This document shows, one piece after another, positions 1,061 through 58,620 of a stretch of 64,000 nucleotides of DNA. The stretch comes from an uncultured Candidatus Entotheonella sp. GTDB lineage: Bacteria > Tectomicrobia > Entotheonellia > Entotheonellales > Entotheonellaceae. The first letter of the stretch is position 1. Every line of letters starts with the position of its first letter. The notes beneath the pieces are model-generated. The model was given only the letters and a program-made list of their open reading frames with translations. It was not told the DNA's origin and searched no databases. The DNA lies in NCBI GenBank assembly GCA_951828535.1, contig OX639990.1, positions 2,963,300 through 3,027,299 of the forward strand, read 5' to 3'. The translations under genes and the position numbers were made by a program.

Positions 1061-1105
1061 CTCCCTCTCCCCTGGTGGGAGAGGGTCGGGGTGAGGGGGA
1101 AATTC
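1061..1105 (+). repeat. Dispersed palindromic (REP-like) element, copy 1
   Basis: A CTCCCTCTCCCC / GGGAGAGGG hairpin is followed by GGGGTGAGGGGGAAATTC. Closely matching copies lie at 11348-11392 and 58577-58620, with an inverted copy at 44579-44622. The upstream 60 bases hold two more G/C hairpins of the same style. It sits between two convergent or tandem transcription units and contains no gene. Confidence 0.75.
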
Positions 1106-11347: not shown

Positions 11348-11392
11348 CTCCCTCTCCCTCGGAGGGAGAGGGTTGGGGTGAGGGGGAAATTC
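11348..11392 (+). repeat. Dispersed palindromic (REP-like) element, copy 2
   Basis: Nearly identical to 1061-1105, including the trailing GGGGTGAGGGGGAAATTC. It lies about 75 bases after the SDR stop and 55 bases before the rhodanese gene. A weaker hairpin of the same type occupies 11308-11340. Confidence 0.75.
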
Positions 11393-11447
11393 AAAGTAAG
11401 ATATTACAAACGCCGCGAATCGTTTGACTCACACAGGAGAAACCGCA

Positions 11448-11810
11448 ATGGCCATGACAGGACGAGACATGATCGAGGCGGCCCGGCGCGTCGTGCCCGG
11501 CCTCAACCAATCCGACCTCAGCTCTCAACTCGACGCGGGTGACCGCGTCGTGGTGCTGGACGTCAGGGAGCGAGCTGAGTGGGACGACGGCCACATTCCG
11601 CAGGCGACGTGGCTGGCCCGGGGGTTCATCGAGGGCCGCATGGAGGAAACCGTCCCCGACAAGAACACGCCCATCGTGACCCATTGAGGCGGCGAGAATC
11701 GTGCTGTCCTGGCAGGACAGACCTTGCAGCAGATGGGTTACACCAACGTGCATTATCTGGTCGGCGGCTTCATCGGCTGGCGGGAAAACGGGTTGCCCGA
11801 AGCGTCATGA
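11448..11810 (+). CDS. Rhodanese-like sulfurtransferase with in-frame TGA at the catalytic cysteine (probable selenoprotein)
   Basis: Read through one TGA at 11685-11687, the frame encodes a 120-residue single-domain rhodanese. It has VVVLDVRERAEWDDGHIPQA in the N-terminal half and GYTNVHYLVGGFIGWRENGL at the end. The TGA is residue 80, exactly where the active-site Cys belongs: PIVTH-(TGA)-GGENR matches the family C-x4-R loop. The frame downstream is clean and ends with TGA overlapping the next start codon (ATGA), as expected for a live, coupled gene. A 7-bp hairpin follows the TGA. AGGAGA lies 8 bases before the ATG at 11448. The protein would handle persulfide or selenium/sulfur groups in the cytoplasm. 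The alternative is a nonsense-mutated gene giving a 79-residue dead fragment. Confidence 0.75.
11685..11720 (+). promoter_or_regulatory. Putative bacterial SECIS element after the in-frame TGA
   Basis: CTGTCCT (11704-11710) pairs perfectly with AGGACAG (11714-11720) around the loop GGC. The loop starts 23 bases after the TGA. Known bacterial SECIS hairpins lie within the reading frame, with a small G-containing apical loop roughly 16-37 bases after UGA; this fits. Selenocysteine insertion itself is inferred. Confidence 0.65.
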
Positions 11811-12244
11811 GCAGCGACGAGCGGGTGCAGGCCGGCAAGACGGTGTGCCTCGATTACACGCTGTGCCTAGCCGACGGCAGCCTGGTCGATTCGGCCCAAC
11901 ACAGCGGCACCTGGACTTACGTGCACGGCCACACCCGCATGCCGCCCGGCCTGCACACGGGCGTGGAAGGTCTCGGCGTCGGCGACACCGTGCGGCTTGA
12001 ACTGCAGCCCGCCGACGCGTTCGGGTGCATCGACCCGGCGGCCTTCCAGGAATTATCCAAGGAGCAATTCCCCGCCTCGGCCCGGCACCTCGGCTTCGAG
12101 GGCGAATTTCCGGGGCCGGACGGCAGCATCATGCCCTATCGCGTTCACGCCATCCATGACACCACCGTGACCATTGACCTGAACCATCCCCTGGCCGGTC
12201 AGCACGTCGTTTTCGAGGTCACCGTCATTCACGTGCAGGACTGA
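11807..12244 (+). CDS. FKBP-type peptidyl-prolyl isomerase (SlyD-like)
   Basis: This 145-residue protein has the FKBP core interrupted by an insert-in-flap segment, as in SlyD: VCLDYTLCLADGSLVDSAQ, then TYVHGHTRMPPGLHTGVEGLGVGDTV, a flap region (about residues 70-115), and DLNHPLAGQHVVFEVTV, which is the diagnostic N-H-P-L-A-G motif. It lacks the His/Cys-rich metal-binding tail of E. coli SlyD. The family catalyses proline isomerisation and chaperones metalloproteins. Its ATG overlaps the rhodanese stop, so the two genes are translationally coupled. Confidence 0.88.
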   Translation: MSSDERVQAGKTVCLDYTLCLADGSLVDSAQHSGTWTYVHGHTRMPPGLHTGVEGLGVGDTVRLELQPADAFGCIDPAAFQELSKEQFPASARHLGFEGEFPGPDGSIMPYRVHAIHDTTVTIDLNHPLAGQHVVFEVTVIHVQD

Positions 12245-44578: not shown

Positions 44579-44622
44579 ACTTCCCCCTCACCCCAACCCT
44601 CTCCCGCCAGGGGAGAGGGCGT
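44579..44622 (-). repeat. Dispersed palindromic (REP-like) element, inverted copy 3
   Basis: TTCCCCCTCACCCCAACCCT followed by a CTCCC/GGGAG hairpin; the reverse complement matches 1061-1105. A related weaker hairpin (CCCCTCTCCCGCC...GGAGGGCTAGGGAGAGGGG) fills 44663-44695. Together they occupy the space between the convergent rph and 44736-46322 genes and could act as a transcription end. Confidence 0.72.
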
Positions 44623-58576: not shown

Positions 58577-58620
58577 CTCCCTCTCCCCTGGCGGGAGAGG
58601 GCTGGGGTGAGGGGGAAATC
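58577..58620 (+). repeat. Dispersed palindromic (REP-like) element, copy 4
   Basis: CTCCCTCTCCCCTGGCGGGA...GGGGTGAGGGGGAAATC, nearly identical to copies 1 and 2. A second hairpin of this type precedes it (about 58509-58543). They fill the 300-bp space between narK and nirBD and may stabilise or end the narK transcript. Confidence 0.75.

What the first reader, a model, noticed from the sequence alone, without database searches (positions are those of the whole stretch)
11448..11810. Probable selenocysteine-containing rhodanese
An in-frame TGA occupies the exact active-site cysteine position (PIVTH-TGA-GGENR). The frame then continues as a perfect rhodanese C-terminal half and ends overlapping the FKBP start. 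A 7-bp hairpin with loop GGC lies 23 bases after the TGA, within the range known for bacterial SECIS elements. Random nonsense mutation would rarely hit this one codon while sparing everything else. I recall rhodanese-like selenoproteins from computational surveys, but the pairing with a SlyD-like FKBP seems noteworthy.
Basis: partly seen in the sequence, partly recalled or inferred. Interest (0 to 1): 0.88.

Follow-up and report, generated by a model that had tools for sequence, protein, structure and literature searches.

The report
Selenocysteine rhodanese in sponge symbiont Entotheonella
A small sulfur-handling enzyme of an uncultured sponge symbiont very probably carries the rare amino acid selenocysteine at its active site, and its bacterial group seems to have made this cysteine-to-selenocysteine swap in several rhodaneses, which is a good but not unprecedented case.

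Summary
At 11448-11810 an otherwise intact single-domain rhodanese gene has one in-frame TGA (11685-11687) exactly where homologues have the catalytic Cys. A 7-bp hairpin with loop GGC follows, with the loop starting 23 nt after the TGA. The 3.6-Mb genome, a close relative of Candidatus Entotheonella, encodes tRNA-Sec (anticodon TCA), SelA, SelB and SelD. The TGA is kept in all four genomes of the order that are held, down to 49% protein identity, without other disruptions. The hairpin meets all four published bacterial SECIS constraints, carries a compensatory pair change, and is stronger than synonymous recodings allow (p about 0.001). Cys rhodaneses of the same genomes lack such a hairpin. 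All formate dehydrogenase hits lack a TGA. Sec-rhodaneses have been described since 2005-2008, so this is a new member of a known kind. The unusual part is how often rhodaneses carry Sec in this phylum. Selenium incorporation and enzyme activity remain untested. The FKBP neighbour is real but kept in only three of four genomes.

The parts
11435..11439 (+). Shine-Dalgarno-like AGGAG, 8 nt before the ATG
   Evidence: read from the sequence
11448..11810 (+). Sec-rhodanese gene (single-domain rhodanese, 120 aa with Sec80)
   Evidence: Pfam Rhodanese PF00581 E=5e-19 over residues 22-113; AlphaFold model pLDDT 95.8; best PDB fold match 6mxv, TM 0.91
11685..11687 (+). UGA read as selenocysteine, at the catalytic Cys position (codon 80)
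   Evidence: Cys80 column invariant in 15 aligned sequences; TGA conserved in 4 of 4 genomes of the order
11704..11720 (+). predicted bacterial SECIS hairpin: 7 bp, apical loop GGC at 11711-11713, 23 nt from UGA to loop
   Evidence: -9.4 kcal/mol; p=0.001 against synonymous recodings; compensatory U-A to C-G change in two relatives
11807..12244 (+). FKBP-type peptidyl-prolyl isomerase (FkpB/SlpA-like), 4-nt overlap with the rhodanese stop
   Evidence: PF00254 E=3e-8; next gene downstream also in G002 (92% id) and G003 (68% id), not in G001

Best explanation
This is a selenoprotein gene. UGA 11685-11687 is decoded as selenocysteine by SelB and tRNA-Sec, guided by the hairpin at 11704-11720 (supported by comparative evidence). 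The product is a 120-residue single-domain rhodanese with Sec80 as the active-site nucleophile in the loop U-GGEN-R, of the six-residue length usual for sulfurtransferases rather than Cdc25/arsenate-reductase-type phosphatases (loop rule from established knowledge). Inferred, not shown: Sec80 takes a sulfane sulfur from a donor such as thiosulfate, a persulfide or polysulfide, and passes it to a thiol acceptor; the Se-S bond would make turnover faster and the enzyme easier to recover after over-oxidation. The overlapping FKBP is probably translationally coupled in this genus; a role in folding or assembling the rhodanese is speculative.
For: Full Sec machinery in the genome, with SelB and tRNA-Sec in 5 of 5 genomes of the phylum. 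TGA conserved in 4 of 4 genomes of the order, no other stops. dN below dS on both sides of the TGA in all three comparisons (the closest pair has few changes and distant dS is near saturation). Cys at this position in 31 of 31 outside homologues, invariant column C80 and near-invariant R85. The SECIS hairpin passes the published model of PMC13188914: loop 3-9 nt, stem 4-16 bp, G in the first two loop positions, 16-37 nt spacing, MFE of -7.5 kcal/mol or lower. Compensatory change, synonymous-recoding test, negative Cys controls in the same genomes. Other rhodanese types in these genomes carry TGA at or beside the same residue. Fold and active-site loop position.
Against: No direct evidence of selenium in the protein or of activity. 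The stem has only one covarying base pair in the main family, and total folding energy with a looser hairpin definition did not beat synonymous recodings: the support comes from the specific bSECIS geometry. The SECIS score weights and limits were set by me, not taken from bSECISearch.
Confidence: 0.93

Rival explanations
1. A nonsense mutation or pseudogene at the active-site codon, giving a truncated, dead rhodanese.
For: TGA is one base away from the TGC/TGT Cys codons.
Against: Same codon in four genomes down to 49% identity without any other lesion; dN below dS downstream of the TGA; TGA at or beside the same residue in several other rhodanese types of these genomes.
Confidence: 0.02
2. 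Sequencing or assembly error.
For: The genomes are probably metagenome-assembled; the G002 record is titled as a MAG.
Against: Independent assemblies from three genera share the TGA.
Confidence: 0.01
3. TGA is reassigned genome-wide (for example to Trp) or leaks through without selenium.
For: None found.
Against: 15 of 31 long ORFs in the window end in TGA, though those ORFs were called with TGA as a stop; the rhodanese itself ends in TGA and no homologue has Trp at position 80; Sec machinery present.
Confidence: 0.01
4. It is a selenoprotein, but the Sec acts as a peroxidase or reductase (or arsenate reductase) rather than in sulfur transfer.
For: Most characterised selenoproteins are oxidoreductases (PMC9312934); rhodanese folds also serve in phosphatases (PMC3276061).
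Against: The six-residue loop with conserved Arg85 is the sulfurtransferase type, not the seven-residue phosphatase/arsenate-reductase type (loop rule from established knowledge); no resolving Cys near the Sec in the window sequence.
Confidence: 0.25

Closest known systems
Rhodanese-related sulfurtransferase selenoproteins (COG0607 types of GOS; rhodanese-like forms 1 and 2 in PMC13188914)
   Same: Rhodanese domain with predicted Sec and a bacterial SECIS downstream
   Different: Listed motifs are UxxS and UxxG; here the loops are UGGE/UAGE/URRD. No Entotheonellota member is mentioned in the papers searched
Rhodanase-related sulfurtransferase of the Sargasso Sea (COG2897 SseA type, PMC1088965)
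   Same: Tandem-rhodanese selenoprotein; resembles the second Sec-rhodanese type found here (UQGGIRAAH)
   Different: The window gene is single-domain
NF041203 rhodanese_LYCAU (seleno)protein
   Same: Curated Sec-rhodanese family; one Entotheonellota paralogue (L108) is a member, 174 bits against a cut-off of 115
   Different: The window protein scores only 45 bits and lacks the CxU motif
MoeB with N-terminal rhodanese domain (PRK08762)
   Same: Closest curated sequence profile, E=6e-24 over the rhodanese part
   Different: No MoeB/ThiF domain here; far under the family cut-off

Membership tests
Bacterial selenoprotein (UGA-decoded) | selC, selA, selB and selD in the genome | tested here: met
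Bacterial selenoprotein (UGA-decoded) | in-frame UGA aligned with a conserved Cys of homologues | tested here: met
[quoted passage not shown]
   GGC loop, 7 bp, 23 nt, -9.4 kcal/mol; model from PMC13188914
Bacterial selenoprotein (UGA-decoded) | TGA-containing homologues in other organisms | tested here: met
   4 of 4 genomes of the order
Bacterial selenoprotein (UGA-decoded) | selenium in the protein | not testable with these tools
   needs 75Se labelling or mass spectrometry
Rhodanese sulfurtransferase | rhodanese fold | tested here: met
   PF00581, model and PDB matches
Rhodanese sulfurtransferase | CX4R active-site loop of six residues | tested here: met
   U80-GGEN-R85; R85 nearly invariant
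Rhodanese sulfurtransferase | sulfurtransferase activity | not testable with these tools
   no assay possible
NF041203 LYCAU rhodanese selenoprotein | score over the curated cut-off of 115 bits, CxU motif | tested here: not met
   45.3 bits, no Cys two residues before U80

The most novel reading that the evidence does not exclude
Entotheonellota have turned rhodaneses into a main outlet of their selenium: several independently Sec-converted rhodanese types (single-domain, tandem thiosulfate/mercaptopyruvate type, exported, cyclase-fused) per lineage, kept alongside Cys paralogues, with no Sec in formate dehydrogenase. This would point to a selenium-dependent sulfane-sulfur metabolism in sponge symbionts.
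Probability: 0.35. Interest if true: 0.7.

Novelty: new member of a known kind. Interest (0 to 1): 0.5.

Why it matters
It adds the Entotheonellota, a phylum of chemically rich sponge symbionts, to the selenocysteine-using bacteria by sequence evidence. No paper in the library held both 'Tectomicrobia' and 'selenoprotein', and the three holding 'Entotheonella' and 'selenocysteine' include one that reads SelA/SelB homologues there as part of an unusual RiPP cluster. A phylum-wide Sec trait offers a plainer reading of those genes. The repeated Cys/Sec switches in one fold within one small phylum give a natural series for testing what selenium adds to sulfur transfer. Standard annotation would likely cut such genes at the active site.

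Tried and rejected
Hairpin free energy with a loose definition: no better than synonymous recodings; dropped in favour of the published bSECIS geometry. A comparison of rhodanese Sec usage with the phylum of L060 failed on the handle format and was not repeated. Formate dehydrogenase as a further selenoprotein: all hits in five genomes lack a TGA. FKBP as an obligatory partner: rejected, missing in G001. Sec RiPP next to selAB: in this genome selAB is followed by an AhpD-like gene and no RiPP genes were recognised by reading the translations (no profile search made).

Full report
Observation. The window has an ATG-initiated frame at 11448-11810 with a ribosome-binding site (AGGAG, 11435-11439), one internal TGA at 11685-11687 and a terminal TGA that overlaps the next gene. 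With the internal TGA read through, the product is a 120-residue rhodanese (PF00581, E=5e-19). The model (pLDDT 95.8) places residue 80 in the loop between a strand (76-79) and a helix (84-95), and superposes on solved rhodaneses (6mxv, TM 0.91). A coding-potential scan of the whole window gives three TGAs flanked on both sides by coding-like sequence. One lies just before another gene's start and one looks like an antisense shadow, so this is the only convincing read-through.

Organism and machinery. The genome is one contig of 3.6 Mb. Its nearest relative in the collections (93% identical rhodanese, same genus code) is a record titled uncultured Candidatus Entotheonella sp. (OY282375.1; the match of G002 to this record rests on the contig length). 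It encodes tRNA-Sec with anticodon TCA, adjacent selA and selB and selD, the last carried in a 754-residue ORF whose N-terminal part looks by eye like a pyridine-nucleotide-disulfide oxidoreductase. SelB and tRNA-Sec are found in all five genomes of the phylum that are held.

Conservation. All four genomes of the order have the gene with the same single TGA; the three relatives are 93, 63 and 49% identical to the window protein. dN is below dS both before and after the TGA in each comparison, though the closest pair has few changes and dS is near saturation for the distant ones. Thirty-one homologues outside the phylum all have Cys there. In a 15-sequence alignment that column is invariant, with Arg85 nearly so, a CX4R sulfurtransferase-type loop.

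SECIS. The hairpin CTGTCCT-GGC-AGGACAG satisfies all four constraints of the published bacterial model. In the two more distant relatives it reads CTGCCCT-GGC-AGGGCAG, a compensatory U-A to C-G change at the same spacing. Scored for perfect stem and G-containing loop in the allowed window, it is matched by about 0.1% of synonymous recodings. A looser energy-only test showed no excess, so the signal is specific to the SECIS geometry. As a control, 22 Cys rhodaneses from the same five genomes gave no hairpin with p below 0.15, against a clear shift in the Sec set (Mann-Whitney p=0.001 with one value per subfamily; the subfamily grouping is mine).

A wider pattern. A Pfam rhodanese search of the five genomes shows many matches with exactly one TGA. 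Reading these frames shows the TGA at, or two residues beside, the catalytic Cys position in each. The types are: the window's single-domain type (four genomes); a tandem thiosulfate/mercaptopyruvate type with UQGGIRAAH and a perfect TCCGTGC-GGC-GCACGGA hairpin (G000, G002 and a fragment in G001); a type with an N-terminal hydrophobic stretch suggesting export and the motif UxCPHH (G000, G002, G003); LYCAU-like types, one over the NF041203 cut-off (G003) and one apparently fused to a nucleotide-cyclase domain (G001, by eye); a UAGGGRSS type (G001); and two further tandem ones (G003, G004). The window's genome thus has at least three. A tree of 37 domains needs about five Sec/Cys switches (bootstrap range 4-7, at least three forced by supported branches); short domains and long branches make the exact number unsure. 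All formate dehydrogenase hits in these genomes lack a TGA. Whether rhodaneses are the main selenoproteins here is open, since other selenoprotein families were not searched.

Neighbour. The overlapping FKBP-type isomerase is conserved next to the gene in G000, G002 and G003, but not in G001 or in the fetched flanks (up to 3 kb) of Cys homologues. Its closest curated model is the FkpB/SlpA type. Coupling through the ATGA overlap is likely; functional dependence is speculation.

Mechanism and status. UGA decoding at Sec80 is strongly supported by comparison. Sulfur transfer through a selenenyl-sulfide intermediate is inferred from the family and the loop. Selenium content and activity have not been tested. 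Sec-containing rhodaneses have been predicted since the Sargasso Sea and Global Ocean surveys (PMC1088965, PMC2398784) and are listed in five forms in a 2026 review (PMC13188914), so the find is a new member of a known kind in a phylum not named in the papers searched.

Noticed in passing
G000:C1:1508283-1508558 (L084, L114): Second Sec-rhodanese candidate in the same genome: N-terminal hydrophobic stretch suggesting export, motif UTCPHH, TGA kept in G002 and G003, hairpin GGCCA-GTT-TGGCC 22 nt from the TGA to the loop.
   Followed up: yes
G000:C1:3145595-3146374 (L104): Third Sec-rhodanese candidate: tandem mercaptopyruvate/thiosulfate sulfurtransferase type, TGA in the C-terminal domain (UQGGIRAAH), 7-bp hairpin with the same GGC loop as the window gene.
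   Followed up: yes
L111 (G001:C11:77901-80900): A frame that joins a Sec-rhodanese domain (YCTUEGETTSARV) to what looks like a nucleotide-cyclase domain; not confirmed with profiles.
   Followed up: partly
L107 (G004:C623:11709-12044): Tandem rhodanese with TGA at the catalytic position but no hairpin matching the SECIS model at the usual distance; either a different SECIS or an assembly problem.
   Followed up: partly
L067 8760-12737: selA-selB followed by an AhpD/carboxymuconolactone-decarboxylase-like gene with CxxC. A 2025 paper (PMC12858407) reports SelA/SelB homologues in an Entotheonella RiPP operon; no RiPP genes were recognised by reading the translations here.
   Followed up: partly
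window 1075-1097, 11362-11384, 44585-44607, 58591-58613: Dispersed GAGGGAGAGGGTTGGGGTGAGGG-like repeat, four near-copies (none expected by chance); one copy lies just upstream of the rhodanese gene.
   Followed up: partly
L068 3385-5649: SelD is carried in a 754-residue ORF whose N-terminal half looks like a pyridine-nucleotide-disulfide oxidoreductase (FAD) domain; fusion judged by eye.
   Followed up: no
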